A stretch of 64,000 nt of DNA, from assembly GCA_036874045.1 (NCBI GenBank), contig CM072340.1:4107001-4171000 (forward strand), read 5' to 3'. This DNA comes from Cymodocea nodosa (Eukaryota > Streptophyta > Magnoliopsida > Alismatales > Cymodoceaceae). Below the pieces are notes generated by a model that searched no databases, was not told where the DNA came from, and saw nothing but the letters and a program-made list of their open reading frames with translations. The translations under genes and the position numbers were made by a program. Shown here one piece after another: positions 1 through 38,594 of the stretch (its first letter is position 1; the number at the start of each line of letters is the position of its first letter).

Positions 1-537
1 AATGAAATACAGAAAAGGATCCGTGTCTATTTCAAGATAATGTAGTTTTTTCTATTTCTACAGATATTTCAATATATTCCTCTTCCCATTTCCATTCATT
101 TAGGTCTTTTATAATCCATATTTGAAATTTCATCAATTCATCCCACCATCTTATCAAACATAAAGTAGGATCATCATATTCATTATACCACATTCCTAAT
201 TAAATTTTGTCATATTCTGCAGATGATGGTTTAGCTATATCACTCGGTATGGGCAATATTTCTATAAAGTCATTATCATAATTGTCTATACTTACTATGT
301 ATAAATCTGATCTTAATGCAACCGATATATCTAACACTAAATATATATATGCATCAAGTATGACATGTATATTGTTAATTAATACTTTATGTCCTAGATA
401 TATCATAGTATTTTTAGTCCAAGATCTATTCAAAAAATTATACACACTTAAGCATAAATCCTCATCCTAATTTCCAGTTGGTCTCCAGTAATACAATTTT
501 TCAGGAATGGTTGAATTTTTATCAAAAAATGTTAAAG
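1..537 (-). pseudogene. F-box-like gene fragment, C-terminal half, of gypsy copy G0
   Basis: Read on the minus strand, this matches the C-terminal half of the F-box-like gene found intact in outline in G1 (12787-15861) and G2 (48053-57111). Shared words include YNFLNRSW, ILPIPSDIAKP and the Trp-rich segment around 100-190. The order is reversed relative to G1, so it belongs to a minus-strand element. It is cut at the left by the window edge and at the right by the G1 insertion. A stop (AAT TAA) at about 197-202 breaks the frame. The F-box motif itself is not in this fragment. Its missing N-terminal part is not found elsewhere in the window. Confidence 0.75.
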
Positions 538-542
538 TTGAC
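538..542. repeat. left target-site base pairs of G1 (TTGAC)
   Basis: The five bases before the first LTR base of G1. In the other F-box copies the same place reads GTCA(A/G)CTTTAA on the gene strand, so the bases are original host sequence. The matching right-hand copy was not found, because the right end of the G1/G2 block has been deleted. Confidence 0.5.
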
Positions 543-893
543 TGTTTAGAATGAAAAAGTGCATATTATTAACGGTTAAATGATGGTTAATTGCATAATA
601 TTTAGCTTATCATATGAGAATTAAGCCATTATGTTATAATTGTACTGTTATATGCTTTAATTGAAGAATCTACTTAATTTTGGGGAATTAATGTCAATTT
701 AGTACATTTCTGAACTATCAGTAAGTTGAAGGTTGTGAAATTCTTAAGTATTCGAATTTTCTGATATTTCGAACAATTATGTGTAACAGACTGAACATGT
801 TGGATAGTTATTTTTAAATTGCCGAACAATTATGTTTTCAAAGAATATTTTATTATTTCCTAAAGTACACGTGTTAAAACCCTAATGCATGAC

Positions 894-1285
894 TTAAGTG
901 AACTTTCGGTGAGTTATCTCTAACTATCCGAAATTGCAGTTGGGCATCAGACAGTTATATGTGTAACCCTTCGAAATCTCTTTTTATTTATAAAATAGTT
1001 GTGGGCACGTGTCATGTTCTAGTAAAGTGACTTAAGTGGACTTTCGGTGAGTTATCTATAACTATCCGAAATGCATTTAAGCATCGGATAGTTAGACCTG
1101 TAACTCTCCAAAATGGGTATTTTATTATTAAACTACTGCTAACACATGCCAAGATTTGGTAGATTTACTTAAGTTATATATCGGTGAGTTAGCTGTAACT
1201 ATCCGAAATGCATCTAAGCATCGGATAATTAAGTTTATAAGTACCCGAAATGCACCTGAGCATTAGATAGTTAAATTTATGCACG
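894..1285 (+). repeat. three imperfect tandem units in the U3 of the G1 LTR
   Basis: Units begin near 894, 1030 and 1163, about 135 bp apart. Each has ACTTAAGT, then CGGTGAGTTA, then TAACTATCCGAAAT, then a reversed half such as GCATCGGATAGTTA, so every unit is also an imperfect inverted repeat. Similar units occur in the G2 3' LTR (59260-59490). Confidence 0.8.
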
Positions 1286-2376
1286 CGTTTTATAGTTAAA
1301 TCAACGAAGAAAGTCCGTTGAGTTATCTGTAACTCCATAGACTATTTATTTTCTAATATGCCATTGTAGCGGTTGCAGAAATAGGACAGTTGGAAGAAAA
1401 ACCACGATTGCATGTATTGCGCAGGGAGAAGAAATCATCACCGTTGATATGAATGAAGGAAATCCAACCGATCATTCAAGCAGAAGCAGTTACTACTAAA
1501 GAAATATAAAAGAAAAGAAGAAAAAGAAGTAGGTGTGATCGATGGACGGTTAGTGTATATAGAGGAGGAGCACCGAGCTTTCTATAGATAGTATCAGTGA
1601 TTCTCCAAAGTATCACACCAACCATCGTTACCACCACCATATCCACCATAATCGCCAACCATTGGAGGTTTGTGAGAATACTTTCTTGATGTCGGGACGA
1701 TTCTGAGCCAAACACAGTGCTTGACAACCATTGTGAGGAGTGATCGCGTCGCGGGAAGGGAAGCCATTTTCACCAAGCGTCGACTCATATTTCAGGTGAT
1801 CGTAAAGCTTTTAGCCTTGGCTTCGGGTTGATGCCTGTATGCTGAAGAGAAGATTATCTTGCAATTCTGGACTCGCGATTCTATAGGGAGAGGAGATAGA
1901 ATTGTAAGTGGTTTAATTTTCAGTGGTGTAATCGCGTTGCAAGTAGTGTTGGAAGTATTTACTGTCGAGTGAGATTACTTTACATTTCACCTTTCACCCA
2001 TTTCCATGTTCATATTAAACCAAAAATACCAAAAACAATTTATCTATGTTTGTATGTTGTATTTGAGTGTTGTATTGTTTGTGTTTTATCGTGATTAATG
2101 TTATCTTTGTCAGTATTGTGATTATTTTATGTTTGTTTTAGTTTTATAGTTTACTGAAATTGGTTCGTTCAAAAGACTTAAAGATTTTAATGGTTACTGT
2201 TTGAATTATCTGAATGTTAGTATTGCTTGATGATAAATCCAATGTTTACTAACATTAAAGAGCTTAATTGATGTTATTTACAGTCTGTGGAATCGCCCAA
2301 TGGTTGGTCGAATTCCTTTGTAAATAGCAGTATTAAAAAAAAAGACAAGCTTATAGAGTTAACTTAAGTCCACGAG

Positions 2377-2462
2377 GTTAGTCCGTTGAGTTAGCTATAA
2401 CTCAATGAACTTTATCCGTTGAGTTAACTGTAATTCAACGGAGAGCTTATTGAATATATAAA
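2377..2462 (+). promoter_or_regulatory. LTR promoter region: CCGTTGAG palindromes plus TATATAAA
   Basis: Alternating TCCGTTGAGTTA and TAACTCAACGGA-type half-sites lie at about 2380-2443, followed by TATATAAA at 2455-2462. The LTR end is some 285 bp further on, a plausible R-U5 length. The solo LTR E keeps the same order in reverse (13775-13825). Promoter function is inferred. Confidence 0.5.
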
Positions 2463-2754
2463 TTTGATTGTTAACAAACGAACAGTTCTCAAATTCTTCA
2501 GCAATTCCCTATGGGATCGACCTGTACTTGCACACTGATACAATAGACATTGTGCACTTACAATTAAAGTACAAATTGGAATTAATATCTAAATTGTATT
2601 AAAGGTTGTTTGTTTACTTCTAAAAGAAAGAATAGACATAAAGATAAATTAACTAAGTAAAAACAGAAGTAACAAATCCAAGCTTTTCTGGTATGTTATT
2701 GGAGATCTAATTAGATATTTTGGTGTAGTGCTGAAAAAACACAAACTAGTTTTA

Positions 2755-2772
2755 TGGCGCCGTTGCTGGGGA
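2755..2772 (+). other. primer binding site of G1, tRNA-Asp type
   Basis: TGGCGCCGTTGCTGGGGA, seven bases after the LTR. It differs by one base from the intact tRNA-Asp-type site in D (19755-19772), which is typical of the Athila/Tat branch of Ty3/gypsy. Confidence 0.88.
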
Positions 2773-2858
2773 ATTGAATTGAATTAATATAAGCAACTAT
2801 TAGAGTTGTTTTGTTTTAATAGCCAGAGAGTTGTGTGTTTTCTTTTGTAATTGAGAAT

Positions 2859-3773
2859 ATGGCATATGCTTATGCTCAAAGATTTCTGAAACCTTTAATT
2901 AGCATATGTGAATTCTGCAATTCTGAAGGACACGACATTTCTGATTGTTTGAAATTGAGACATTTACAGATTGATAGATCCCATGAACAACAAATGAATT
3001 ATCCTCAAAATAATAGAGTCGAGTATGAGAATCCTATAGTTTACCCAACTGATGGTCAGTATAGAATGTGTAATATGATGAGAGACACTGAAGTTTGGGA
3101 TAGCTATGACAGACTGGAGCATAGTATAGAGCAAAATTTGGACAAACTGGAATACTTTGTGTGTCAACAACAAGAAGTCAACCAATTAAACTATAAGGAG
3201 GCATATTCAGAACCTAAACAGGATATAATTTATGAAACTGAAAAAGTCATAAAGAAAATTGATCAAAAATTGAATGCAATGAAATTAGATGATCTGGAAA
3301 CAAAATTAAAAGCATTAGACAAAAATGCAATGAAAATACAAGTTTTACAACAGGACAATGAAAATTATAATGTTATAAACCTGCACAACTTGCAAAATAT
3401 ACAACAAACAGAAAACACAAATGTAAGAGAATTTAAAGAATGCACTTTAAAACTAAAAACAATTGAAGATCATAATTACGAAAATAATATACAAAAACAT
3501 CATAAGAGTAATGAAAATCTAGAAGATGTATGTGTAACATTAAGATCTAGAACTGATATACCACTAAGAACTCAAAATGAAAATGATATGAAGGCGGATA
3601 AGAGTAAAAATCAAAATGATAATGAAAATGTAATAGCTAAAAATCTAGAAATCACTGAAGAACAATTTGAATCTGCTAATGAAGCTAAAAATGATCAAAC
3701 AAATCAAATGAAAGAAAAAGAATCTTTAAAATCAAAATGTTTAGCACCCTATCCTGAAAGATTACAATAAACA
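2859..3773 (+). pseudogene. G1 gag-pol frame, N-terminal part with CCHC zinc knuckle
   Basis: The first ATG (2859, conserved in G2 at 24709) lies 86 bp after the primer site. At 2907-2948 a CCHC zinc knuckle reads CEFCNSEGHDISDC, the nucleic-acid binding motif of retroviral nucleocapsid. A long Lys/Glu/Asn-rich, probably coiled-coil, stretch follows. There is no capsid domain before the knuckle, where Athila elements normally have it; that domain is found at 11325-12596. The frame ends at a TAA (about 3768) which by context was CAA, since the text after it continues in the same frame into the protease. The real product was probably one polyprotein to 7497. Confidence 0.78.
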
Positions 3774-4400
3774 ATACTTGAAAAACAAGAAAAAATCAGA
3801 GAAATTTTTGAAAAAGTACAAGTTAACATTCCTTTGTTAGATCTATTGCATAAAATGCCACCTTGTGCTAAATTTTTGAAGGATTGGTGTACTAAGAAAA
3901 GAGAGCGAAAAGTTCTTAGAAAGGTCTTTTTAGCTGAGCAAAGTAGTTCCCTATTTCTGCCACAAATTCCTAAAAAGTTATCTGATCTTGGAATCCCTAT
4001 TATATCATGCACCATAGGAAACACCATTTTAGAAAGAACCTTAATAGACTTAGGTGCAGGTATAAATATTATGCCAAGTGATATATTTGCATCCTTAGGA
4101 TTAGAAGGCTTAACTCCTACTAGTACGGTTATTCAATTAGCTGATAGAACTATAAGATACCCTAGAGGAAAAATAGAGGATGTCTTAATTAAAATCAAAA
4201 ATTTTATATATCCTATTGATATTGTAATTTTGGATTCCCAATAAATTAAGCATAAAAATAGTGATACATCTTTAATTTTGGGAAGGCCATTTTTAGCAAC
4301 ATCAGGGGCTGTTATAAATTGTAAAACTGGAGTAATGAAGCTAGCATATGGTAATGAGGATACTCAATTAAATATTTTCAAACTAGAAAGGTTTGAGGAA
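3774..4400 (+). pseudogene. G1 aspartic protease region
   Basis: Same frame as the preceding ORF. The segment KVQVNIPLLDLLHKMPPCAK is the typical Athila spacer before protease. The active-site motif is DLGAGINIMP (about 4050-4080), followed by ADRTIRYPRG and, after an in-frame TAA at about 4242 (CAA by comparison with G2), by ILGRPFLATSGAVINC. These are the usual landmarks of an Athila-type retropepsin that would process the polyprotein. Apart from the stops the motifs are complete. Confidence 0.85.
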
Positions 4401-5458
4401 TTAGAAATGTCCTTACATACCATAGACTTTTTAGAGGATGAAGGAGATATGTTAGATGATGTGATTCAAGAAGAATTAAATAGGCAAATCAATTCTGAAA
4501 CTTTAGAGGAAAGTGAAAGCATAGATATAGAAGGAGATCAGGAAGAAATTAATTTAGAAAATGATGATGTTCAATTAGGAGCTCTAGCTTCTGATGGGCA
4601 GCATTTAAAATTAAAACTTTTACCTCCTGAATTAACCTATATATTTCTGGAAGATAAACAAACCTGTCCAATCATTATTGCTTTAGATTTAAAAGAGGAT
4701 CAAATAGCTAAATTAAAAGATGTAGTAAAAAGTTATAAAGAAGCAATAGGATGGACTATGACTGATATAAAAGTGTTAAGTTCAACTTTATGCTGTCACC
4801 ACATATATTTAGAAGAGAATGCTAAACCTGTTAGAATACCTAAGAGGAGATTAAATCCAAACCTTAAAGAAGTAGTCAAGAAGGAAATAGTGAAATGGTT
4901 AGATAATGACATAATTTATCTGATTTCTGATAGCTCGTGGGTTAGCCCAATCCATGTATCTCCCAAGAAATCAAGATTAACAGTTATTAGGAATGAAAGT
5001 CAAGACTTGATACCAACTAGAATTCAATCAGGCTGGAGAGTATGTATAGACTATAGAAAGTTGAATGCTGTGACTAAGAAAGATCATTTTCCCTTACCTT
5101 TTGTAGATCAAATGCTGGAAGGATTAGCAGGGCAAGAATATTTTTGTTTCCTAGATGGGTATTTAGGTTATAATCAAATTCCAGTAGCATTAGAGGATCA
5201 AGAGAAAGCAACTTTCGCATGTCCTAATGAAACTTATGCTTTTAAGAGAATGCCATTCGAATTATGCAATGCGCCAGCTACCTTTCAAAGGTGTATGCAG
5301 GGCATATTTACTAGAATGACTGAAGATTTCTTAGAAATATTTATGGATGATTTTACTGTATATGGCAACTCATATGAAGTTTGTTTAAGCAATTTAGACA
5401 AATATTAAAACGCTGTGTGGAAAAAAATCTGGTTTTAAATTAGGAAAAATATCACTTC
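4401..5458 (+). pseudogene. G1 reverse transcriptase
   Basis: RNA-dependent DNA polymerase region of the polyprotein. Visible landmarks are WVSPIHVSPKK, GWRVCIDYRKLNAVTKKDHF, FCFLDGYLGYNQIPVA (catalytic Asp), FELCNAPATFQRCMQGIF and the active-site box FMDDFTVYG (about 5340-5366), the FMDD form seen in Athila. A 1-bp deletion near 5400 shifts the frame (G2 reads NLDQVLKRC there), and a TGG-to-TAG change follows at about 5440. The enzyme is therefore inactive in this copy. Confidence 0.9.
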
Positions 5459-6205
5459 ATGGTTAAACAAGGAATTGTCTTAGGGCATGTTGTTTCTAAG
5501 AAAGGGTTGGAAGTAGATAAAGCTAAAATAGAAGTAATTTCTAATCTACCAGAACTTAAATCAGTAAAAGATATTACATCATTTCTAAGACATGATGTTT
5601 TTTATAGAAGATTTATTAAAGACTTTAGCAAAATAGCTAGACCTTTAACTAATCTATTAAAAGATGTCCCATTTAACTTTGATAAAAACTGTAAGGAAGC
5701 ATTTTTCAAACTTAAGACTAACTTAATTTCAACTCCTATAATTCAAGCACCTGATTGGAACCATCCATTTGAATTAATGTGCGATGTTTCTGATTTTGCT
5801 ATAGGAGCAGTGTTAGGATAGAAAATAGAAAAATCTCTTAGAGTGATTCATTATGCAAGCAAAACCTCAAATGATGCTCAAGTTAATTACACAACTACTG
5901 AAAAAGAATTATTACCTATTGTGTTTGCCTTAGAAAAGTTTAGATCATATCTGATTGGAGCTAAAGTGATAGTATACACGGATCATTCAGCTTTAAAACA
6001 TCTAATAAAGAAAAAAGAGACTAAACCTAGATTAATTCGATGGATATTATTATTACAAGAATTTGATTTAGAAATTAAAGATAAAAAAGGTTGTGAGAAT
6101 GTAGTAGCAGATCATTTATCAAGATTACAAATAGAAAAATCAAATATTGAAATTAAGGATAATTTTCCTGATGAACAATTAATGACCATCAACACAATGC
6201 CTTAG
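5459..6205 (+). pseudogene. G1 RT connection and RNase H
   Basis: Begins with FMVKQGIVLGHVVSKKGLEV, the end of RT, and [17 protein letters not shown]. RNase H follows with the Asp of ELMCDVSDFAIGAVLG, the Glu of TTTEKELL and the Asp of [10 protein letters not shown], then [11 protein letters not shown], typical for Ty3/gypsy. The role is to degrade the RNA strand of the RNA-DNA hybrid. In-frame stops at 5819-5821 and near 6203 break the frame; it is shifted one base relative to the upstream part because of the deletion near 5400. Confidence 0.88.
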
Positions 6206-7497
6206 TATGCAGACATAGTTAATTACTTAGTAACTGGTTTAACACCTAAGGATTGGAATAGACAGGATAAGAAATTGTTTTTCTCAAGAGTAAAGTATTA
6301 CTATTGGGAAGACCCATACTTATTTAAGAAATGTCCTGATCTGGTTTTTAAGAGGTGTGTTCCAGAAATTGAATATCTAAGCATATTGTCTTTCTGTCAT
6401 GACCAAGCTTGTGGAGGGCATTTTGGTTCAGGGAAAACTGCTGCAAAAATTCTGCAATGTGGGTTTTATTGGCCAACATTATTCAAAGATGCTCATAAAT
6501 ATTTCTTAAGTTGTTTAAGATGTCAACAAATAGGAAGAATATCAAAGAGGAATATGATGCCTCTTAATACTATTGTTGAGGTTGAAATCTTTGATGTGTG
6601 GGGAATAGATTTTATGGGTCCATTTCCTATGTCTAATCAATTTAATTACATATTGTTGGGGGTGGATTATGTATCTAAATGGATAGAAGCTATTCCTACA
6701 AAAACTAATGATAACAAAGTGGTAATACAATTTATAAGAACAAATATATTTGCCAGATTTGGAATACCTAAAGCTATTATCAATGATAGAGGAACTCATA
6801 TTTGTAATAGAAGTTTTGAAGCCTTAATGAAGAAATATGGAGTAAACCACAAAATTGCAACATCATATTATCCGCAAACAAGTGGACAAGTAGAAAGTGC
6901 AAACAAACAAATTAAGTTAATCTTAGAAAAAGTAGTAAATCCTACTAGAATAGATTGGGCTAATAGATTGATAGATGCACTTTGGTCTTATAGAACTGCT
7001 TATAAAACAAGCTTAGGATGTCACCTTTTAGGCTAGTATATGGAAAAAGTTGTCATTTACTTGCTGAAATAGAACATAAAGTTTATTGGGCATTAAAAAT
7101 TCTGAATACTAATTTATATCAAGCTTCTGAAAATAGAAAAATGCAACTAATTGAATTAGAAGAATTTAGAAATGAAGCTTATTCGAAGATTGTAAAAGAA
7201 AAAGAAAAAATTAAATTCTGGCATGATAGAAAAATTATTCCAAAAGGCTTTGAAATAGGACAAGAAGTATATCTTTATATGGCTAGACTCCATAACCATC
7301 CAGAAAAATTAAGATCTAGATGGGGAGGACCTTACATAGTTCGAAATATTTATCCTTATATTGAAATTGAAAATCCTACAAATCAAAATATATTTAAAGT
7401 AAATAGACAAAGACTTAGACCTATTCTGAAAACACCAAAAAGTTCCTTTGGAATTATAGAAGAAGTCAGAGTAGAGGATTACTCGAGCTTTACTTAG
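6206..7497 (+). pseudogene. G1 integrase
   Basis: The HHCC zinc-binding part reads FCHDQACGGHFG and LSCLRCQQIG (about 6395-6535). The catalytic core has Asp in WGIDFMGPFP (codon 6608), Asp in INDRGTH (codon 6785) and Glu in GQVESANKQIK (codon 6893), so the last two are separated by 35 residues: a DD35E core. A 1-bp deletion near 7015 shifts the C-terminal part (7018-7497), which has the GPY/F-like motif RWGGPYIVRNIYPY. No chromodomain is visible, as expected for Athila. Ends DYSSFT and stop, as in G2. Confidence 0.9.
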
Positions 7498-7559
7498 TAA
7501 GAAATCAGTTATTATGTTTATATATAAAAAAATTTATAATAAAAAAAAACACATTAAAA

Positions 7560-7591
<32 letters not shown>

Positions 7592-8115
7592 AATATCAAA
7601 ATCGTTACGGTTCAACCGATCGAATCCATCGATATGATCGGAACATAAAAAAATATGTATATTAATTTTAAGAAAAAATGTTGGTTTTACCGAAACATAG
7701 TATCGGTTCAACTAGAAAAAATATTTAGGTCTGACCGAAACATAGTACCGGTTAAACCGAGAGAAAAAAGAAGAAGAAGTTAAACAGAAAAACTATTATC
7801 TGTAGTATTTTTATTATTATATCTGTTTGTACGGGGAGTCCGTTGAGTTATGTTTAACTCAACGAGCTTACTCCATTGAGTCTTGAGTTACTCAACGAGC
7901 TTATTCCGTTGAGTTAACTATAACTCAACGGAGTACTATAGCTAAGACCGCGAATAAAATAGTAATAGTTGGTTCGAGAAATGACCCGATTACCTACCTA
8001 AACTTAGGGCTTATTTAAACTAAAACCTAAGGTTTTGGGGGCATTATCCGGCAAATCATTTAGAATCTAGAATAGTAGAAATCAGAGCGATTCCGTGTTG
8101 TTGGGTAACTCCACG
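7498..8115 (+). promoter_or_regulatory. spacer between pol and env-like region of G1
   Basis: No coding sequence supported. In order: a poly(A)/TA stretch, short palindrome-like units of the TCGGTTCAACCGA type at 7605-7765, a CCGTTGAGTTA / TAACTCAACGG cluster at 7838-7940, a TATTTAAA box at about 8012-8019, and the start codon of the env-like frame at 8116. The same order is kept in G2 (42523-43258). An internal promoter or RNA structure is suggested by this arrangement but not shown. Confidence 0.45.
7568..7591. repeat. TA microsatellite
   Basis: Roughly 12 TA units. Absent at the matching place in G2, so it expanded in this copy. Confidence 0.9.
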
Positions 8116-10311
8116 ATGAGGAAAATGACGCTTGAATTCTGGGAAGATGCAGTGGACACCGCACAGTTTCTGAAGGAATTTGAAGAATGGCACACGCAGC
8201 AAAAGATCCAGAATACAACAAGAGAGAAAGAGCTACAAAAGGTAGAATCAGAACTCTTTAACTTGAGGAAAGTTTTAGTTGAGTTAGAAATACAAATACC
8301 ACAAATAATGGAGACACGAATCAGAGTAGCAATAGAAATTGCAGTTAGTAAAGAAAGAAGAATCAGGCCAAACAATGAAGTAGCCCTAGAGTTAATTCAA
8401 CGTAAAGCCAGATTGTGGTTTAAGAAACGCATTGCTGGTCAAGGAAGCTAGGCAATATGGGAGTAGCAACGAGCAAGAGAATAGGAAGAATCGACTGCTG
8501 AAAGACCTGTTCTTGAGAAACAACAGTCAGGACCTCCAGTTTAGCTAACAAAAGCGTTGCCACGATTAGCATTTGTTTGGCCGAGAACTGATGAAGAAGA
8601 GAAAGAATTTACTAGCTTCGTCAAAATAGCAAGAGACCAAGGTGATACTCAAGAAATAGCTACGGCTAAGGCACATATTTTATATGATGCCATTAAGAGA
8701 AAAAGGGTCGAAGAAAGGATAAGGGCCCAATACAAAATAAAAGTTGAACAGTATCAAGCAGCAGCTACTGCCAAACCTGCTGCAAAAGGAGATGAAGCTG
8801 GTCCTTTGAGACCAGCAGTTATAGAAAAAGTTAAATAGGAAAAGCCAATACCTATGGCTCGAAGGCTTACAGAGCCTACTTTTGTAGATTTAATTTCAGA
8901 AGATGAAGAGGAAGAATAGGCACAATTAATCAAAAAAAGAAAGGAAAAGAAAAAGTGCCTGAAAATGAGGAAATTAAATCTGAAGTACCAATTTTTACAA
9001 GGCCTGTGGAGCAAATTTTTATAAACCTGCTATCCGATTCTGAGGAGGAGCAGGAGGAGCAAAGACAAGAAGAAAATCAGGTTTAAATTAATCTACAGCC
9101 TGTATAAGAAGAAAAAACAGAAATTAGGGCAGAAACTGAATTTCCCGTGACTCCATCCCAATCTATTACAGAATCAGAAAGAACAGTAACAGAACAGATT
9201 GGTAGTTAGGAGGAAGAAGAAAGAGTAGAAAATGAAGAGAATGAAAGAAGCCATTTGGACAAAAATAATTTCACAGATTCCACTGAAGAGCAAGAAACTC
9301 TTTAGCAATATATGGAAAGAATTCAAGACAAAGTGGAGAGTTCTGCCAGCTCACCACCACAAACAGAAACAGAAATTCAGGAATCTGTAGAAAATATTCA
9401 AATGCAGCCTATGTTAGAGGAAGAGCAAGTACAAACCCCTCTAGAACAACAAAGTCACCTTCCTGACTCGACTGAAACAACAATTTTGAATGAAGTACAT
9501 TTTTGTAGTCAAAAAGCTTATACCAAATACCAAGAAATAAGGGGTTACGATATTATTTACAGTAGACCAGTAAATTAGGATGGAATGCAAGAAATCAAAG
9601 ATCTATTTGAATTCCAAGGTCTACTACAATTCATTTCTCAAGAGAGAGGGCATGCAGTATATGAGAATTTAGTGTCCTATTTTTATGCAAATTTAAGAGA
9701 GAGAAGGAGGATTAATTTCAAAGGTGGAGGAAGCTGATGTACAGATAACACTAGAGCTTCTCCACAACATTTTTGGATTAAAGAATGAAGGAATAAAAAT
9801 TTTGGAAGGTACAACTGCCGTCGAGTAGACTGAACAGGAAATCAAAGATTGTTTAGCTATCAATCCTAATGTACCTTTATTAAACAGATTGAAGCATTTA
9901 AGTGGTAAAGCACACATGATAGCTAACATTCTGATTAAAAATGTCTATCAACGACAGGGTCATGACATAGAATTAAGTTAATTTGTCAAATGGGCCACAT
10001 ATGCAGTTGTAAACAGGATTCAAATAAATTGGTCTACAGTTTTTATCTCCAAGCTGAAAGTAGTAAAGAAAAAATTGTTTTATGGAGATTTTGATTCTAT
10101 TACTGATGGTGGACTATATCGATTTTACTAAATGGACATCAAAAAGGATCAGATCGAGAACCATTTCAGTGAAAGAATACAGAAATTTTGTAGTTGCAAA
10201 GATAGCTGTACCTCTAGAGGCATTACAAGAGCTGTAGAGAGAATTAATCAATTAGAACTTCAATTAGAAAAACTCCAGAAGGAAGTAGATGAACTAAGGA
10301 ATAGTGATTAA
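8116..10311 (+). pseudogene. G1 env-like ORF (putative plant transposon domain type)
   Basis: Starts at ATG 8116, matching ATG 43259 in G2. An N-terminal helical part (FWEDAVDTAQFLKEFEEW to about 8448) is followed by an acidic, Gln/Glu-rich linker with many stops. The C-terminal domain (9497-10311) begins VHFCSQKAYTKYQEIRGYD, then DLFEFQGLLQFI, FGLKNEGIKIL, KAHMIANILIKNVYQRQGHD and VVNRIQINW, ending in a short coiled coil (INQLELQLEKLQKEVDEL). The pattern resembles the putative plant transposon protein domain found in env-like ORFs of large plant retroelements (from memory, not searched). No signal peptide or membrane segment is evident. Function unknown. The same domain occurs in copia elements B and C. 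Confidence 0.68.
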
Positions 10312-11324
10312 ATTGTATTGTTCGTCTACTTATATAATTGTATGAAAATGCACGATGTATTTGTAATGTAAATTGATTCATATTAATGAATATAATTTTT
10401 TAGATGTACTTTTCATACGTGTTTTGGATGTGAAATGAATGGAATTTATTGAATATTACATAATTTGTGGAACTTTATGAATGAATATGTAACAGATTTA
10501 CAATTTGCTGAATGACAAGATAAATGCTTAAAAATTTCTACATGTTGCAAGGAAAAATGTAAATTCTGCATAATATAAAATGACCTACAAGTTAAATCTT
10601 TATATAATGTTCAGATTTAAATGAATTTTGATTAGAATGATGCATTAATGACATAGATTTAACTTTATTTCAGTTAGCAGAATGAAAAAAAAAAAAGTAG
10701 AGAGAAATTTACGAGAGTAAACTTAGAAGTTGCTAAGTGTTAACTCAACAAAGTAAGTTCGTTGAGTTAACTGTAACTCCACGAGGTCAGTAATATAATA
10801 TAAGGTCACTCCGTTGAGTTATCTGTTACTCAACGAAGTTAGTTCGTGGAGTTAGTAATAGTAACTGACTATGTTCCGTTGAGTTATCTGTAACTCAACA
10901 AGGTTAGTTCGTGGATTAAGCAGAATGGTTATTCTTTTAACCAAGAATGAAACTTCGTCAGTTTAGCGGTTACCAAAATTTAAAATTAATAGTGGTACAC
11001 GTACCTATAAAAACAGGAACCACGATGCACGTTGCAAGACACGTTCTTGCAACGAGATTTATTCACTTTATGGATGCACATTATATATATAAATCAGAAT
11101 GTTATTTACGAGTTACTAGCACTTTTAAAAGAAAGGAGAATGCTTTGGAGGAACTGAAAGGTGAAGCAGTTGATTCAACTTCATCCGACAATAAATATTT
11201 ATTGAATGGAAAGCTTCAAACTGGTATGTAATTAATCTTCTGCTATTTATTTATGAGCACATAGACTCGTTCTCTAAGCACTAAGCGATTAGTAAGAACA
11301 CCTACCTAGGAATTTTCATTGCAG
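10312..11324 (+). promoter_or_regulatory. spacer between env-like and gag regions of G1
   Basis: No conserved coding. It contains four or five CCGTTGAGTTA / TAACTCAACGA-type sites at 10743-10910 and a TATATATAAAT box at 11085-11095. A candidate intron (GTATGT at 11224, TTTTCATTGCAG ending 11324) sits just before the gag frame. The small ORF at 10947-11231 is broken by an early stop in G2 and is probably leader. Confidence 0.42.
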
Positions 11325-12596
11325 AGGAGTACTGAAAAATTTTCTAAACTGAACTTTAACGAAATTCTTTGGGGTGTAGCTAACCTTTCTTTAAAAGAGA
11401 ACGTAGAGATGGCTGTTTTAGTAGAAAAACCATTAGGAGAAATTCTGTATCCGGAATTAGTTGATGAACTTTCATGTATTCGATTGCCAAACTTTGAGGG
11501 AGATAGGTTTGAACTGAAATCTAATTGTATTAGTCAATTGCCACATTTTCATGGATTAGAAAGAGAGGATGCCTATTATTTCCTTAGAGAATTTAATGAA
11601 GTTTGTCAAATGATGAAAATGCCAAAAATGAGTATAGATGCTATTAAACTTAGATATATTCCTTTTTCTTTAAAAGACATAGCTAAGAGATGGTTATATA
11701 CTCTATCGCCTGATTCAATTTCTACATGGACTGAATTTTGCTCTATTTTTCTGGAAAAATATTATCCAACACATCAAACGATTAAAAAGAAGAAAGAAAT
11801 CTTAATGTGTAGCCAAAAACAGGGTGAATCATTCTAGAAATATTTTGAAAGATTTAAAGATTTATTGACTTAATGTCCACATCATGCAATGAGTAAAGCA
11901 CAATTAATAGGTATAATTTATGAAGGCATAGATGTTTCAACGAAATCTTTATTAGAATCTACTTGTCAAAATGGATTTTTAAAGTTATGTAGTGAAGAAG
12001 CATGGGCATATTTAGAAAACTTTGCAAAAAGAACTACACAGTCGGAAAATTCGGTTGAAGCTATTGCAGATAAAAAAATATTGCTAAGAGGAATGCATGA
12101 ACTAGATTCAAATACTATGATTGAGGTAAAATTAAATGAATTAACAAAGAAAATAGAAGAGTTATCATTAAATCAAAAGCTAGCAGAAAAGAATGCAAAC
12201 ATAAATGATTTAGATATTATTTATGCTAGAAACCAGAGAGATAACTTGGGAAATTCTTATAATCCTAATTGGAGAAATCACCTGAATTTCTATTGGAGAA
12301 ATAACAATTTCTAGGGAGGAGAAAATATAAATGAGAAGAATATAAGTTATGAAGCATTACTGAAACAAGGATCTAGAATAGAGAAATTAGAAAAGATAAT
12401 CCAACAATTAAATAATCGTCTAGATTTTGTACTTGGAAATGCTGCAATTCAAAATCAGAATAGAAATATACCACTTAGACAGAAGGAACCAATGGAAGAT
12501 AGACCTACTAGAGGATTGCCAATACAAGCTATACCTAATCCTGTCAATAGAATGGTCAATGAAATTGATACCTCTTCTGGGAGGGTAGCTAAATGA
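11325..12596 (+). pseudogene. G1 capsid gag region, located downstream of pol
   Basis: Structural gag protein that would form the particle. It carries the retrotransposon gag core: HFHGLEREDAYYFLREFNEV, then IKLRYIPFSLKDIAKRWLY, SISTWTEFCSIFLEKYYPT, YFERFKDLL, CPHH and GIIYEGIDVSTKSLLEST. Its C-terminal end has YNPNWRNHLNFYW, RGLPIQAIPNPVNR and SSGR, equivalent to the end of Athila gag. The CCHC knuckle is missing here and is found at 2907-2948. In-frame stops at about 11835, 11871 and 12312. The conserved reading begins right after a splice-acceptor-like CAG (11324); the first in-frame ATG is 11409. Confidence 0.82.
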
Positions 12597-12786
12597 AGCA
12601 GCATATCTGAAGCAACTATCTGTATGTATATATGTTTTTATTTTAAGTTAATAGTATCGTAGACTTAGTCCTTAACTCAACGAACTTAGTCCATTGAGTT
12701 ATGCCTTAACTCCACGAGGGTGTGCAGTAGTTATATTAATTTTTTGTCTCTGCTAAATTTTTGTTTGTGTTATACAGAATCAACAA
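12597..12786 (+). promoter_or_regulatory. spacer between gag and F-box-like gene of G1
   Basis: Contains CTTAACTCAACGAACTTAGT and a CCATTGAGTTA half-site (12668-12718), then a pyrimidine-rich tract ending TTATACAG (12777), ten bases before the F-box ATG. G2 keeps this tract as TTATATAG. This looks like a 3' splice site, but no donor has been proven. Confidence 0.4.
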
Positions 12787-13525
12787 ATGGAATTGATGTA
12801 ATTACCGTTGGATGCACTAAGGGAAGTACTGAGTAACTTGTTAGCCAAATATTTGTGCAGGCTGTGTTGTGTATCAAAGGAAATTAAAAACTGTATTGAA
12901 GAAAAATATTTTCAAGGACTACAAGCTGCAAAAATGACTAAGATTAGAGATGGATTCATATGGAGGTCATTTAATCGTAGTTCAATTAACCATGAATATC
13001 TGGCTATGGAAGAAACTACTGGAATTCCACCTAATGCATTAGAAGGAATAAATCATATTATTGGGATAGATGAAGGATTAATCATATACAAGACGAGACC
13101 AAGGTATGCAAGTTTATTATTACCTAATATTTTGATAAGAAATCCTATAACAAGAGAAGAATGGAATATAGGAAGACCTAATAGATTTGAAGTACCAACT
13201 GTAAATTGTGGGTCAGCTTTAATATTTTCTGATAAAAATTTTGCAACTCCTAAAAAATTATATTATTGGAGACCTACAGGAAACTAGGGTGAAAATTTAC
13301 GCTTAAGTGTGTATAATTTTTTGAATAGATCTTGGAATGAAAATATTATGATATATTTAGGATAGAAATCATTAATTAACCAAGCACATGTCATACTTGA
13401 TGGATATATATATCTTGTCACAGATATTTCAATTGCATTTGGATCTGATTTATACATAGTGAGCATAGATAGTTATGATGAATATATAGAAATTTTACCT
13501 GTACTGAGTGATATAGCTAAACCAC

Positions 13526-15455
13526 TGTTTGGGTTTTCCCAACACTACACTAGAAAAACTTGGATTTGTTACTTCTATTTTTACTTAGTTAATTTATCTT
13601 TATGCCTATTCTTTCTTTTAGAAGTAAACAAACAACCTTTAATACAATTTAGATATTAATTCCAATTTATACTTTAACTGCAAGTGCACAGTGTCTATTG
13701 TATCAGTGTGCAAGTATAGTCGATCCCATAGGGAATTGCTGACGAATTTAAGAAATGCTTGATTGTGAACAATTCAAATTTATATTCAATAAGCACTCCG
13801 TTGAGTTACAGTTAACTCAACGGACTATCCTCGTGGACTTAAGTTAACTCCACGAGCCTGTCTGTTCTTTATAATACTGCTATTTATAGAGGAATTTGGC
13901 CAACCATTGGGCGATTCCACAGATTGTAAATAACATCAATTAAGCTTTTTAATGCTAGTTAACATTAGATTTATCATTAAGCAATACTAACAATCAGATG
14001 ATTCAAACAGTCACCATTAAAATCTTTAGGTTTTTTGTACGAACCAATTTCAGTAAACTGTAAAATTAAAACTAACATAAAACAATCATAAAACTGATAC
14101 AGATAACATTAATCACGATACAACACAAACAATACAACACTCAAATACAACATACAAACAAACATAAATTGTTTTTGGTATTTTTGTTTTGATGTGAACA
14201 TGGAAATGGGCGAAAGGTGAAATGTAAAGTAATTTCACTTGATAGTAAATACTTCCGACACTACATATGATGCGATTACACCACTGAAAATTAAACCACT
14301 TACAATTCTGTCTCCTCTCCCTATAGAATCGCGAGTCTAGAATTGCAAGATGACCTCCTCTTCAGCATACACACATCAACCCAAACCCAAGGCTAAAAGC
14401 TTTACGATCTCCTGAAATATGAATTGGTGCTTGGTGAAAATGTCTTCCCTTCCCACGACGCGATCACTCCTCATAGTGGTTGTCAGGCACTATGTTTGGC
14501 TTGGAATCGACCCGACATCAGGCAAGTATCCTCACAGACCTCTAATGATTGGTGATTATGGTGGTGATGGTGGTGATAATGATGGTTGGTGTGATACTTC
14601 GGAGAATTGACGATACTGTCTGTAGAAAGCTTGGTGCTCCTCCTCTGTATACACTGGCTGTCCATCGATCAAACCTTCTTCTTTTTTTCTTCTTTTCTTT
14701 TATATTTCTTTAGTAGTAACTGCTTCTACTTGAATGATCGGTTGGATTTCCTTCCTTCAGATCAACGGCGATGCTTCCTTCTCCATGCGCAATTGAATTC
14801 CTACGTGATACGTGCAAACGTGGTTTTTCCTTCTAACTGTCTGTTCCTGCAACTGCTATAGTGGCATTTTAGAAAATAACTATAAAATACATGCAATAAA
14901 GAAATAAGCCGCTAACCTAACGTGTTACTTTAGTGTATATTCATGTAACTCAACGCGTACAGTTATGCTAACTTAACGAGTTAAACATGTGCATCTCACA
15001 TGATATTCTAAAGCATTTAAATTCAACACGTGCATAAAATACATGCAATAAAGAAATAAGCCGCTAACATAATGCGTTACTTTAGTGTATATTCATGTAA
15101 CTCAACGCGTACAGTTATGCTAACTTAACGAGTTATAACTTAAGTAAATCTACCAGATCTCGACACATGTCAGCAGCAGTTTAAACATAAAATAACATTT
15201 CGGAGAGTTACAGGTATAACTATCCGATGCTCAGATGCATTTTCGGATACTTAAGAATTTCACAGCCTGCAACTTATCGACAGTTCATAAATGTACTAAA
15301 TTAACATTAATTCCCCAAAATTAAGTAGATTCTTCAATTAAAGCATATAACAGTGCAATTATAACATAATGGCTTAATTCTCATATGATAAGCTAAATAT
15401 TATGCAATTAACCATCATTTAACCATTAATAATATGCACTTTTTCATTCTAAACA
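13526..15455 (-). mobile_element. solo LTR E, gypsy family, minus orientation
   Basis: Bounded by TGTTT and AAACA and flanked by perfect 5-bp duplications ACCAC (13521-13525 and 15456-15460). Removing it and one ACCAC restores the F-box reading (CTAAACCACCATCTGCAG as in G0/G2). It is the same family as the G1 LTR, reversed: U5 at 13640-13740, CCGTTGAG cluster at 13796-13850, GC-richer middle at 14300-14650. About 1930 bp. Loss of the body by LTR-LTR recombination is the usual origin. Confidence 0.93.
14882..15135 (-). repeat. two 102-bp tandem copies of a copia-like U3 block in solo LTR E
   Basis: Copies at 14882-14983 and 15034-15135 are nearly identical. Each contains CCGCTAAC, ACTTTAGTGTATATTC, GTAACTCAACGCGT and TAACTTAACGAGTTA. 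The same series, with small changes, is found in the copia LTRs (49318-49400 in C; reverse of 28003-28100 in B). It is not present in the G1 LTR. Confidence 0.82.
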
Positions 15456-15861
15456 ACCACCATCTGCAGAATTTAATAAAATTCAAATAGGAATGTGGTA
15501 TAATGAAGAAGATGATCGTACTTTATGTTTGATATGATAGTGGGATGAACTGATGAAATTTCAAATATGAATTATGGAAGACATAAATGAATGGAAATGG
15601 GAAGAGAAGTAAATTGAAATAGATGTAGAAATAGAAACTGCTACATTACCCTAGAACCAAAAAGGATCTCTTTCTGCATTTCATATTATTAATGGTAATA
15701 CACTTGTATTTGGAATTTATAATATATTACACGTTTACAAATTAAGAAGGAACAAGAACTATATGAAAACAGAATTAATAGCAAGAAGAGCTATGCTTAA
15801 AAAGTTTGCTTGGATTGATACATTTATTCCATTTGTTCCTACTTTTCAATCCTATTCTTAA

Positions 15862-17134
15862 GCTGTAATTTTGTGTGTTTAATGTTGTGTGTATTCTACA
15901 TTTATGTATAAATAATAAAAAACAAAATATCAATCCAGTTTGTTGGTATCTGTTCTGGGAAACCAACTGGCTTGCTTGTGAGCCACTAGAGGCATAGAAG
16001 ACTAGGTTCCACATAAGACACTGAATTATCAATATCTGTTAAGTGTTTTTTTGTTTTATATTTTGCTTTTATTTGTGAATGAAAAGTTTTCAGAATCAAA
16101 AATTGGAATATGCAGAAGGAGATACAAATGGAACAAAGTATGTAACCATGTAACCAATTACTTACCCTAAATTTTAAATCAAACAAAACTGTATTCATGC
16201 CTACTACAATTACTATACTTATTGTCAAATCTTTTACATTGAGGACAATGCAAAATGTAGGTATGGGGGGGAGGTAATTAAAGTAACAGCTATGTAGGTT
16301 TGTTAATTAAAGAAATTAAAATGGTACTGCAAAGTTGTGGAAATTGAAAATTTTTATGAACTTGCTGTAACTATCTGATAATTGAGACTGTAAAATTTAT
16401 AATCTGTAACTGCTTGAATGTTGTATTTAGAAGGCTATATATGATGCTATAGAATTTACTATTTATGCAAATCTAGATATAGTATCTTATGATTTTTCTG
16501 AATTTCATGAGTTTAATAGTTTCACGATTTTAAAATGAAATCAGAATGCTTAATGAAAAATCAATAAATTATCTAAAGTCCTAAAGGAGCTTAGATGTGA
16601 ATTCTAGATTAAATGAAACACATATGATTAAAGATACAATTAATTTGATTGATTGAACTTGTAGAATGATTTATGTGTAGATCTAATTAAATTGCAAAAA
16701 AAGTATGAGCTTATTGTTATGGATTCATATTTTCAGTAAATGATAGAAGCAGGACTATATGAGATTGGTGTTTTACTTCATCTGTATTAATGAAATACAC
16801 ACATATACAATATGTGATTAATGCTTTGTTTTGTGTGTATTTTGATTCAAAAAAAAAAGAAAAAAAAAAGAGAGTTTATTAACTTGTTTGATCACAAGCC
16901 TTTTGTACTTGAGCAGATAGGTATGTAAGGATTGTTGACCTGAAAAAGGACTCTTAAAATTTGGCAACCTAAGATCCTGATCAGATCTGAGATTGTTGAC
17001 CTGAAAAAGGACTCTTAAAATCTGGCAACCTAAGATCCTGATGAGATCTAGGATTGTTGACTGAAAGCTCGTTACATGGGTACATTAGAAAGCTCCTATA
17101 TGATTCAAGCTTGTCAAATTACCTTTTAAAGTAC
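15862..17134 (+). other. 3' non-coding region of G1
   Basis: No gene. It holds the hairpin-like CATTGAGGACAATGCA at 16237-16252 followed by a G-run (GGTATGGGGGGGAGG), seen also in G2 (57592) and D (20852). From about 16440 on it resembles B 34890-35460: TTTTGTACTTGAGCAGATAG, GGCAACCTAAGATCCTGATC and ACTGAAAGCTC. It is cut at 17134 by D. Confidence 0.75.
16931..17052 (+). repeat. 61-bp tandem duplication in the G1 3' region
   Basis: Units 16931-16991 and 16992-17052 both read ATTGTTGACCTGAAAAAGGA at their start and differ at a few bases. G2 and B have one unit only, so this is a recent local duplication. Confidence 0.88.
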
Positions 17135-19754: not shown

Positions 19755-19772
19755 TGGCGCCGTTGCCGGGGA
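19755..19772 (+). other. primer binding site of D, tRNA-Asp type
   Basis: TGGCGCCGTTGCCGGGGA, six bases after the LTR end; appears fully complementary to the tRNA-Asp 3' end used by Athila/Tat elements. Confidence 0.92.
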
Positions 19773-27824: not shown

Positions 27825-28295
27825 ACTCGTTAAGTTAGAGTTTTGTTTATATAGAGGTCACGTGAGAACTCGTTAAGTTAGAGGCTTAAAGGTTAAAATA
27901 GGTCACGTGATAACTCGTTAAGTTAGTGAGTAAAAGAAGAGACGAACTTGTTAAGTTAGTGTTATACACGTGGTGAAATTATAAGTTACGAATGTTGTAT
28001 TGTATCACGTGAGGTGCACATATTTAACTCGTTAAGTTAACATAACTAAACGCGTTGAGTTGCTATATTGAACACTAAGGCAACGCGTTAGGTTAGCGTT
28101 ATAAACTTAAGTTGTTATTTTTGCACGTGGTAAAATTCTTATTATAAAAACATTTGTTTATTACTGGTTCGTTGAGTTATCATAACACAACGGAAATGGT
28201 TCGTTGAGTTATCATAACACAACGTAGATGGTTCGTTGAGATAGCATAACACCACAGACTTAGTTCGTTGAGTTAGCTACAGTACTTGTCACGTG
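27825..28295 (+). promoter_or_regulatory. U3 enhancer-like cluster of B: G-boxes and short repeats
   Basis: Six CACGTG G-boxes begin at 27859, 27904, 27967, 28006, 28123 and 28290. Among them lie repeats of AACTCGTTAAGTTA (27823, 27867, 27911, 28026, 28311 area) and three copies of TGGTTCGTTGAGTTATCATA (28166-28250). G-boxes are known bZIP/bHLH binding sites in plants; regulation of this LTR by them is inferred. Confidence 0.6.
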
Positions 28296-34748: not shown

Positions 34749-36327
34749 AATGCTTAAACTCTACATAAAAAGATAAATATTATTGATGATGTTGTTCACC
34801 TCATAGATATTATATACTTAATATAAATATCTAAAGTAATATCTAAACTGTTGCTTAAGATACTATGTATTTATTGTAAAATCATAGTAGTATCTTATTG
34901 ATTTTAAGTAGTTTATCAATTTTAATAGTTTTTACGATTTTAAGTGGAAGTGTAAATGAAAAACATTAAATACTTCTGACATTCTGAAATTTTGATTAAA
35001 TGTTTTCTTTGAATCAAGGAAAATGCATATGATCATGCATAAATTTGACTTAATTGATTAAACTTGTAGAATAAGTTATTTGTAACTCATCTTAAACTGT
35101 TAATCAAAAGTATAAGCTTATTGAAACTGATTCATATTCTCAGTACAATCATAGAAGTAAAAATTGTATGAGATTTGTGTTTTATTGCATCTGTATTAAT
35201 GGAATACATATATACTGTGCTTAAAATGAAAAGTGCTTACAAAGTGAAAATCTTTGAGAGTTTATTTATCAATTTGATCACGAGCCTTTTGTACTTGAGC
35301 AGATAGGTATGTAAGGATTGTTGTCTTGAAAAAGGATTCTTTAAATTTGGCAACCTAAGGTCCTGATCAGATCTGGGATTGTTGACTGAAAGCTCATTAC
35401 ATTGGTACATTAGAAAGCTCTTGTATGATTCAAGCTTTTCAAACTAACTTTTAAAGAAAATTATCAATATTTACTGTTTTGAAAAGAAAAAGTTGTTTCA
35501 TTAATTACAGATATCTTTGAATCGCATATAGTTTATACCAATATGACTATTGATTTATTGAATCAACATTAGTACTTTTGAAAACGTTTATTTGAGATAC
35601 ATTCTTTCATTCTCCTTGAATTAATCGAATTGAGTTCAAAGTTGTGTTTTGATTCATATACAGTAAGAATTGATTCTGGAAATCATTTTTGATGATGTCA
35701 GGATAACAGAAGTCTCTGAAAAGAAAATGTAAAAGTATAGTTATACTTAACATCTATTGTCACTACAAGTATATTTTGTATTTTGATTGACTATATTTGA
35801 AGTATATTTGTAGGGGGAGGATTAACAATGTCGAAAACAGATTAATATAATTTAGAATACAAATCTTAGTTAATCTGAATTAATGTCCTCTTAAAATCTT
35901 GATGAAATAATTTAAAAAGACAAATAAACTATTTTAGATTCAAAGTTCAAATAATTTACAATGTTCTCAAGATAATGTTAAGTTTAGCATGTGTGTTGTT
36001 TACGGAACGTTTCAGTTGGAAGCATCCGAAAATTGTTTTAAGTGTACTAACTAGACGTTATATTAGATAAGGTAACGTGTAAAACTGCCTCTAGATAGTG
36101 TTTTACTCGTTAGGTTAGTTAACTCAACGAGTTATACTTGAATATTTCGGGTACTTTGATTGAATAAGCTTTATTCAATATTTATTTTATTTCTAAACCA
36201 GACTTCTCTTCACGTTGAGTTATATGCCTAAAAACCCTATTTAAACACTTATTACACGGGCACTTAGGTTATTTGTAAACTTTGTCAAGAAAATCTTTCC
36301 CGCTTGTTGTTGTTACAACCTGCGACG
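34749..36327 (+). other. spacer between pol and env-like ORF of B
   Basis: No coding sequence. About 34890-35830 resembles the 3' non-coding region of the gypsy copies (57840-58790 in G2), including CGAGCCTTTTGTACTTGAG, ATTGTTGACTGAAAGCTC and GTATGATTCAAGCTTTTCAA. TAGGGGGAGG at 35811 is polypurine-like. Near the env-like ORF come TTAACTCAACGAGTTATA (36119-36136), CACGTTGAGTTATA (36211) and CTATTTAAACAC (36237-36248), a TATA-like box 90 bp before the ATG. Confidence 0.75.
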
Positions 36328-38594
36328 ATGGTCTCCAAGTTCTACAAAGGTCGTGGCAGAGGAAAAGGCAAAAGCAGAAGAGATGCAAAAGGAAAAGAAA
36401 TAGAGAATGATGAAGTTCCACGTACTTGGTTCAAGAAAATATTTCGAGTGGACAAAAGGTTAGAAGAACTTTATAGAGATTACTTCTTTTCTCAAGATAT
36501 ATTAGATGAAGTTAGACAAGAACTTCAACATACTGATGCAAGTATTACATACATGGGTATTCGAAGCAAATATGATAGAGAATACAGAATGAAATGTGCT
36601 GAGATTGCATTTTTGGAACAGTATGCAAAATATTTGGAAAAAGGTGTAGGTTCATCATATAGAACTCCTCAAACTCCTATAAACAGTACAAGACTACATG
36701 TATTTGAGGAAGAGCATGAATCAGCTATCTCTACTCCTTTATATTCAAAACAAGTAGAATCAGATATTGCTGTAGACAAAACAAAAGTTGACAGTCTTCG
36801 AAAGGCCATTGCAATAGAAAGTGCCTTAGAAGAATTAAAGCAGAAAACTTTTATGGAGCAATTTGAAAACAAAGCAGCAATACTTGAAAAGGAGAAACAG
36901 AAATGTTATAGAAGAAGGAAAGTCAGAAAAATTATGTCTAAGGAAACAAAGTCTTTTGAAAAAGAAAAATCAGATGAAAATTTATTTCCAAAGGACAATG
37001 TATGTCTAGACATTGTACCTTATTGTGCATCTGATAAACTCATCAGTTCCGAACACACTGAAACTGATGAAGATAATGAGACTTTATTTTCCCTTGCTAG
37101 AAAACTTGAGAAGAAATCCAAGTCAAATATGAGCTTAAGTTTTTCTATTAGTACAAGTCCTGATGATGTAGAAATTGACAAATCAGAGTATCAGGCACTT
37201 GACATTGAACAAGTTATTGCAGATATAATTGACAATGTTGAGGCAGTAACTAGTTCAAAGGCTGAATTGTCTAGAGTAGCAGATATTGAAAATGTTAAGA
37301 CTCTAGAAGAGCTAAAAGTTAACCAGCCTTCTACGGAATCTATAGAAGCAGAGTCTGAGAATTCACAGCATGAATCAATGGAAATATCTGTTGAACAAAA
37401 TGAACAATTACAGACAGATACATCGGTTGTAGAATTTGTTGAAAAATTGTACTCTGAACATTCTATAGAGACTGAACAGATGAATGATGAGCATATTGAC
37501 AATGTTCCTAACACTGTTGAAGCTGAAGAATCAAGCTTACCTGAGTAGCTTCAAGATAAATTTTGGAAGAGGAACAACATGACATTCATTTTGAAGAAGA
37601 GGTTCTTGAAGATGAATTAAACTCTGAATCACGACTTCAGATATCACCTTCTTTGTGTACAATATTAAAAATTCAAGGTAATGCAATTCATTTTAGATCT
37701 CAAGAAGCATTGTAGAAATACAATAATCTGATTACATGTTAGATTCTGCATGCTCGTCCAATAAAATTCAGAAATTTGATGGAAATAAGAGATCTGTTTA
37801 AGTTTCAAGGCCTCATTAAATTCTTACCAGTAGGAACGAAATGGAAGCAATACATAGAGCTTATTACAGCTTTTTATAGCAATCTGGTCAAGAATGGAAA
37901 TTTTCTGAAAACTCAAATAAATGAACAAGAGTTTATATTGTCTCCTGAGTTAATTTTTGAGGTTTTAGGATTAAAGAATGAAGGTGTTGTTGTTACCAAT
38001 AGATTTGACATAATTAGACAACTAGAATGGAACATTCAGTCTTTATCAAAAATTCCAGATGTATATTTTGAAATGAGATTAATGGAAAATCTGAATGTAG
38101 AGGCAAGATTTATTGCAAATATATTGCATGCAAATTTATTTCAGAGAGTTGGACACAATTTGGAAGTCAGTAGAAGCTGTTTATATGCAACTTATGGCCT
38201 ACTGAATAAAATTCAAATAAATTGGTTTGATGTTTTTATGTCTCAACTACATCATATGAGTTCAAAGTTATTTTATGGTGATGCTGTATGTAGAATCCTT
38301 GCAAGCCAATTGACTTTATCTGACTGGCCCTCTGAAACTAAAGGCATGAGAGCATTTAGTGTCAAAGATTTGCAAAAATTCCAGGCCATGAATAAACCTC
38401 AACAACAACAACAACAATAACCTGATACAGACCATTTACAACAACAACAACAAAGTTATTCAGTTCAAGCAGAACAGCAAACCCAGCTACCTCCTGACTT
38501 AGATGTAGTGCTTAACGACATCAGAAATGATATTAGGCATCTAGGAGATAAAATATGTAATTCTATAAGTGATATACTTAGGAGGGGTCGATAA
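36328..38594 (+). pseudogene. env-like ORF of copia element B
   Basis: ATG 36328 begins MVSKFYKG with a basic Arg/Lys/Gly stretch (RGRGKGKSRRDAKGK), then a helical segment (RVDKRLEELYRDYFF) and a long acidic linker. After a TAG at 37546 and a frameshift near 37560 the C-terminal domain reads IHFRSQEAL, KYNNLITC, DLFKFQGLIKFL, LGLKNEGVVV, ARFIANILHANLFQRVGHN and LLNKIQINW, with a polyQ stretch near 38399-38455. The domain aligns with the gypsy env-like region (9497-10311). No membrane segment is obvious, so env function is only by position. The end is RRGR and TAA. Confidence 0.72.

What the first reader, a model, noticed from the sequence alone, without database searches (positions are those of the whole stretch)
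2755..12596. Gypsy family with gag placed after pol and split from its zinc knuckle
In Athila elements the order is capsid gag, CCHC knuckle, protease, RT, integrase, env-like. Here the primer site is followed at once by the CCHC knuckle and pol, while the capsid domain with the typical gag C-terminus forms its own region after integrase and the env-like region (11325-12596). G2 has the same order (46577-47830), so it is not a single rearrangement in G1. A separate downstream gag cistron would need its own expression route and would change the gag to pol ratio. I know of no described Athila group with this order, but I could not search.
Basis: partly seen in the sequence, partly recalled or inferred. 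Interest (0 to 1): 0.9.

Follow-up and report, generated by a model that had tools for sequence, protein, structure and literature searches.

The report
Plant retrotransposons with gag after pol
A large group of plant retrotransposons carries its capsid gene after its enzyme gene, the reverse of the usual order, so it must make and balance its capsid protein in some way other than the usual joined gag-pol reading.

Summary
The order is real and reaches well beyond the window. In family G (the window's), 10 of 12 copies examined have primer site or pol marker, pol, env-like region, then capsid gag and an F-box gene; the other two lost capsid by deletion. One complete copy has two LTRs and a 5-bp target duplication. 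The downstream capsid part is under purifying selection: dN/dS 0.19 against 0.76 and 1.06 in the other frames, and one copy has an uninterrupted 352-aa gag ORF. Of 15 gag loci examined in other families, 14 have an integrase end shortly upstream on the same strand. A family-X copy has both ORFs uninterrupted, 306 bp apart. No gag-first locus of this type was seen, but only 27 loci were looked at. Splice-like sites near the gag start suggest a spliced gag mRNA; that step is inferred. New variant of a known kind.

The parts
543..2745 (+). 5' LTR of G1 (TG...; about 2.2 kb)
   Evidence: direct-repeat partner of 3' LTRs in other copies; boundaries by motif
2755..2766 (+). primer binding site core, tRNA-Asp type (type recalled and from PMC1142308 passages)
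2823..3770 (+). Pol leader ORF opening with knuckle CEFCNSEGHDISDC, then linker and LRSR segment
   Evidence: dN/dS 0.39; no Pfam match
3771..7497 (+). protease, RT, RNase H, integrase (several ORFs, decayed)
8071..10275 (+). coiled-coil and env-like region
   Evidence: weak PF20167 in L016; dN/dS 0.05 and 0.18
11225..11324 (+). intron-like stretch before gag (donor GGTATGT, acceptor YAG)
   Evidence: donor kept in 10 of 11, acceptor in 9 of 11 aligned copies; splicing not shown
11325..12596 (+). capsid gag without knuckle; possible start ATG 11409
   Evidence: PF03732 (4.5e-19 in L030); fold matches to Arc/PNMA2 capsids, E 0.002 and weaker; dN/dS 0.19 and 0.29, last piece 0.51 not significant
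12791..13525 (+). F-box gene, first part, preceded by a TACAG acceptor-like site
13526..15454 (-). nested reverse LTR of the same family, inside the F-box gene; not part of the element
15455..15861 (+). F-box gene, last part
16256..16272 (+). internal polypurine tract-like site, upstream of the 3' LTR site; family X has a similar pair

Best explanation
These are LTR retrotransposons of Athila type in which gag is a separate cistron downstream of pol, as an inherited trait of several diverged families. Shown: the order, its presence in LTR-bounded copies, purifying selection on the downstream capsid part, and open frames. Inferred: the full-length RNA is translated into Pol, which starts just after the primer site with its own CCHC knuckle; Gag is made from a spliced subgenomic RNA with its acceptor at or near the gag start; the Gag to Pol ratio is then set by splicing, and Pol enters particles by binding RNA or Gag rather than as a Gag-Pol fusion. 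Inferred origin: gag was duplicated behind pol, the first copy lost its capsid part but kept a knuckle and an LRSG-like tail fused to protease; family G later gained env-like and F-box genes and lost the Gag knuckle.
For: 10 of 12 family-G copies with pol then capsid gag; two LTRs, PPT and TSD CAACT in one complete copy; capsid dN/dS 0.19 [0.07-0.41] against 0.76 and 1.06, gag dS 0.23 within the pol range 0.19-0.27; uninterrupted 352-aa gag ORF; 14 of 15 gag loci of other families with an integrase end just upstream; family X with open pol and gag ORFs 306 bp apart; Pol N-terminal knuckle in G, X, Y, Z; 8 in-frame stops between pol and gag in X and a YAG 3-4 nt before the gag ATG in X, Y, Z; intron-like sites before gag in G.
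Against: No transcript or protein data. A strict acceptor/mini-exon/donor search hit only 4 of 15 INT-gag gaps (0.45 expected), three of them one family, and missed G, X, Y and Z. No primer site was found upstream of pol in Y or in the fetched stretch of Z. L047 has no integrase within 1.5 kb. Two of 12 G copies lack capsid. dN/dS among close copies is only 0.41 (control frames 0.57, 0.64). Only 27 loci of thousands were examined and the genome-wide order test never ran.
Confidence: 0.65

Rival explanations
1. Same order, but gag is expressed from an internal promoter or by internal ribosome entry rather than by splicing; in family G the palindromic arrays ahead of each downstream cistron would be the control elements.
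For: 41 palindromes in the window against 0-1 in five Markov controls, placed in the LTR and in each gap between cistrons of G.
Against: Arrays of this kind were not found in L031-L033 and only one match in L034, so they cannot be the general route; the same palindromes sit in unrelated copia LTRs.
Confidence: 0.25
2. The elements are non-autonomous: the downstream gag is a passenger and capsid comes in trans from an undetected gag-first family.
For: Every family-G copy seen is decayed to some degree; two of 12 lack capsid; non-autonomous Athila elements are described in Arabidopsis (PMC2410132, passages).
Against: Capsid dN/dS 0.19 and gag dS matching pol dS; both ORFs open in a family-X copy; no gag-first locus among those examined.
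Confidence: 0.08
3. Chance nesting, local rearrangement or assembly error brings unrelated pol and gag pieces together.
For: The window is full of nested insertions; the family-X copy is preceded by another copy's 3' end.
Against: Single collinear alignments across pol to gag on several contigs, a TSD-flanked copy, and the same order in families whose gags share 28-41% identity.
Confidence: 0.02

Closest known systems
Athila / Calypso / Diaspora lineage (Ty3-gypsy, OTA clade)
   Same: tRNA-Asp-type primer site a few bases after the LTR, CX2CX4HX4C knuckle, PR-RT-RH-INT order, long LTRs, env-like region after integrase in G (PMC1142308 and PMC6317226, passages)
   Different: There gag precedes protease in one gag-pol reading; here gag is a separate cistron after integrase, and Pol has its own N-terminal knuckle
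Plant LTR retrotransposons with extra ORFs between pol and 3' LTR (PMC7264820, part 1 of 3 read; Retand, PMC11963269, passages)
   Same: extra genes lie between integrase and the 3' LTR
   Different: those are env-like or antisense ORFs; here the displaced gene is gag itself
Foamy viruses (recalled, no call)
   Same: Pol made independently of Gag with the help of splicing
   Different: Gag is still upstream of pol, and there pol rather than gag is the spliced product

Membership tests
Athila lineage (Ty3-gypsy) | PR-RT-RH-INT order of pol | tested here: met
Athila lineage (Ty3-gypsy) | tRNA-Asp-type primer site next to the 5' LTR | tested here: met
   G and X by motif; not found in Y or Z stretches; the tRNA itself was not matched
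Athila lineage (Ty3-gypsy) | Retrotrans_gag capsid domain | tested here: met
   PF03732 4.5e-19 (G), 8.2e-20 (X), 4.6e-17 (Z)
Athila lineage (Ty3-gypsy) | gag upstream of protease in one gag-pol reading | tested here: not met
Athila lineage (Ty3-gypsy) | RT placed inside Athila on a tree with named references | not tested
   no named reference sequences were at hand
Athila lineage (Ty3-gypsy) | env-like / PF20167-type region after integrase | tested here: inconclusive
   weak PF20167 E 0.008 in G; in X gag follows integrase directly
Retrovirus-like splicing of the downstream gene | subgenomic RNA with leader-to-gag junction | not testable with these tools
   sites only

The most novel reading that the evidence does not exclude
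A whole clade of plant LTR retrotransposons has left the usual gag-then-pol plan: pol comes first with its own N-terminal zinc knuckle, gag second as an independent spliced cistron, so the Gag to Pol ratio is set by splicing and Pol is never made as a Gag fusion. The clade is old, diverse and abundant in this genome, and at least one copy has both ORFs open.
Probability: 0.6. Interest if true: 0.92.

Novelty: new variant of a known kind. Interest (0 to 1): 0.83.

Why it matters
Gag before pol is treated as universal for LTR retroelements (recalled), and the plant survey read here in passages classed 8453 Ty3/gypsy elements by that order (PMC6317226). A diverse group with the order reversed would show that a Gag-Pol fusion is not needed, would give a natural test of how Pol is packaged without it, and would mean that annotation that assumes gag first can mislabel such elements as gag-less.

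Tried and rejected
A single rearranged copy, a scar or LTR between pol and gag, and an assembly artefact: rejected. Gag-Pol readthrough in family X: rejected by 8 in-frame stops, counting pol's own. The Pol knuckle as Gag's own displaced knuckle: rejected because X, Y and Z have both. The palindromic arrays as a general cause or route: not supported outside G. Constraint on the F-box gene: ambiguous (0.41 in frame, 0.38 and 1.21 in the others), so not claimed. Checking the draft, I found that the C1 copy, first counted as having gag, has a deletion that removes the capsid part and keeps only the second part of gag; the count was lowered from 11 to 10 of 12. In one search three query fragments were out of frame; I rely for Y and for Z. 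The search for homologous proteins gave two short metagenome gag fragments for gag and nothing for the knuckle leader or the F-box protein. Two viral-contig scans found no relatives. Paper searches listed no description of this order; one search matched 173 papers and listed 25, one search matched 22 and listed 15; only open-access papers are held.

Full report
What was checked. The window lies in an unnamed 374.6-Mb genome of 28 contigs. Pfam finds protease (weak), RT, RNase H and integrase over 3771-7036, Retrotrans_gag in 11310-11834 and an F-box in 12802-13284. The primer site is at 2755 and the first ORF after it holds a CCHC knuckle.

Is it family-wide? One search found 3145 candidates for a pol fragment and listed 40. 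I examined 11 of those 40 plus G2. G3 was dropped because the window end and a truncation cut it off before the gag zone. Capsid gag lies after pol on the same strand in 10 of 12: G1, G2, both C19 copies, C15, C12, C3, C2, the second C12 copy and C24. The C11 copy lost gag through a deletion reaching into its 3' LTR. The C1 copy has a deletion that removes the capsid part and leaves the second part of gag and the F-box gene. For C2, C1, the second C12 copy and C24 only the gag zone was fetched, and the link to the pol hit is by coordinates on one contig. The C19 minus-strand copy has both LTRs, a polypurine tract GGGGGGAG and the 5-bp duplication CAACT; C3 has both LTRs, with 4 of 5 flanking bases alike; C11 has the duplication GTATG. 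LTR pairs differ by K2P 0.04 to 0.11 by piece, leaving out two off-register alignments in C11.

Is the downstream gag a working gene? Between the G1-type copies and G2, dN/dS in frame is 0.19 [0.07-0.41] for the capsid piece and 0.29 [0.16-0.63] for the next, against 0.65-1.06 in the other frames; the last piece, 0.51 [0.22-1.16], is not significant. Protease, RT, RNase H and integrase pieces give 0.25-0.34 and the knuckle leader 0.39. Gag dS (0.19-0.23) lies within the pol range (0.19-0.27), so the two have been carried together since the split; env-like pieces have higher dS (0.62, 0.99). Among mostly close copies the signal is weaker, 0.41 for the capsid piece with control frames at 0.57 and 0.64. 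L030 has an uninterrupted 352-aa gag ORF with PF03732 at 4.5e-19. Its AlphaFold model is poor overall (pLDDT 56); the best Foldseek matches are Arc, dArc and PNMA2 capsids at E 0.002 to 0.05, none below 0.001.

Other families. A genome search with the G capsid protein gave 5872 candidates, 150 scored, all at 90% identity or more. A search with the metagenome gag P0001 gave 5569 candidates, 150 scored, of several kinds. I looked beside 15 of those 150, all outside G: X (two copies), Y (two), Z (one) and ten more. An integrase end lies upstream on the same strand, within about 0.6 kb, at 14 of 15; L047 showed none in 1.5 kb. None of the ten stretches held an exact primer-site pattern. By tblastn identity, without a tree, these make at least six groups counting G. 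In the X copy on C11 the primer site (L034:1725) is followed by a pol ORF open from L034:1841 through the border codon (GCT) to L031:316, then 306 bp, then a 454-aa open gag ORF. Its upstream neighbour is another copy's 3' end, so no target duplication could be tested. The second X copy has two stops in pol. Gag proteins of G, X, Y and Z are 28-41% identical, and no capsid match below E 0.1 was found upstream of gag in G1, L034, L036 or L037. No primer site was found upstream of pol in the Y stretch or the Z stretch.

The knuckles. Pol starts with a CX2CX4HX4C knuckle in G, X, Y and Z. Gag has one in Y, Z and X, with the last cysteine changed in one X copy; the uninterrupted G gag ORF has none. 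Pol also keeps an LRSR/LRSG segment before protease in G, X and Y, while gag ends in a TSSG/TTSG segment in G and X. The simplest inference is a gag duplication with complementary losses rather than a clean split; the comparison with canonical Athila gag ends is recalled.

What is known. Neumann et al. classed 8453 plant Ty3/gypsy polyproteins as GAG-PROT-RT-RH-INT and could not reliably identify GAG in 159 Ty3/gypsy elements (PMC6317226, passages). Diaspora, an Athila relative, has gag, knuckle, protease, RT and integrase in one ORF and a tRNA-Asp primer site (PMC1142308, passages). Recombination and gag-only or gag-env elements are described for Arabidopsis Athila (PMC2410132, passages). My searches listed no description of gag after pol; they cover an open-access library only, and searches returned nothing. 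I file this as a new variant of a known kind.

Noticed in passing
window 1317, 2385-2439, 7842-7929, 10761-10899, 12659-12715, 57482-57538; also copia LTRs 28171-28255 and 39715-39799: Palindrome GTTGAGTTA-nnnn-TAACTCAAC: 41 matches in the window against 0-1 in five Markov controls, in the G LTR and in each gap between G cistrons, and also in a copia LTR.
   Followed up: partly
window 37776-38417: A nested copia element carries an ORF with weak PF20167 (1.4e-5) that resembles the G env-like protein (33% over 141 aa): an env-like gene shared by copia and gypsy elements.
   Followed up: partly
window 16621-17131 and 35026-35456: About 500 bp near the 3' end of G is 76-89% identical to a stretch after pol in the nested copia element.
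   Followed up: partly
window 12791-13525 and 15455-15861; L017:8359-9279; L029:974-2143: Family G carries an F-box gene, open over 306 aa in L017 (F-box 4.4e-9); constraint on it is ambiguous.
   Followed up: partly
window 17135 to about 24345: Element with two long repeats, a primer site at 19755 and a polypurine-like site at 20872: looks like a short non-autonomous relative.
   Followed up: no
L034:1-576 and L031:3426-4001: The family-X copy's 5' LTR is preceded by another copy's 3' end; 576 bp are 99.65% identical: perhaps a tandem arrangement.
   Followed up: no
window 1-542: The flank left of G1's 5' LTR is reverse-oriented F-box region of another family-G copy, so G1 seems to have inserted into a relative.
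   Followed up: no
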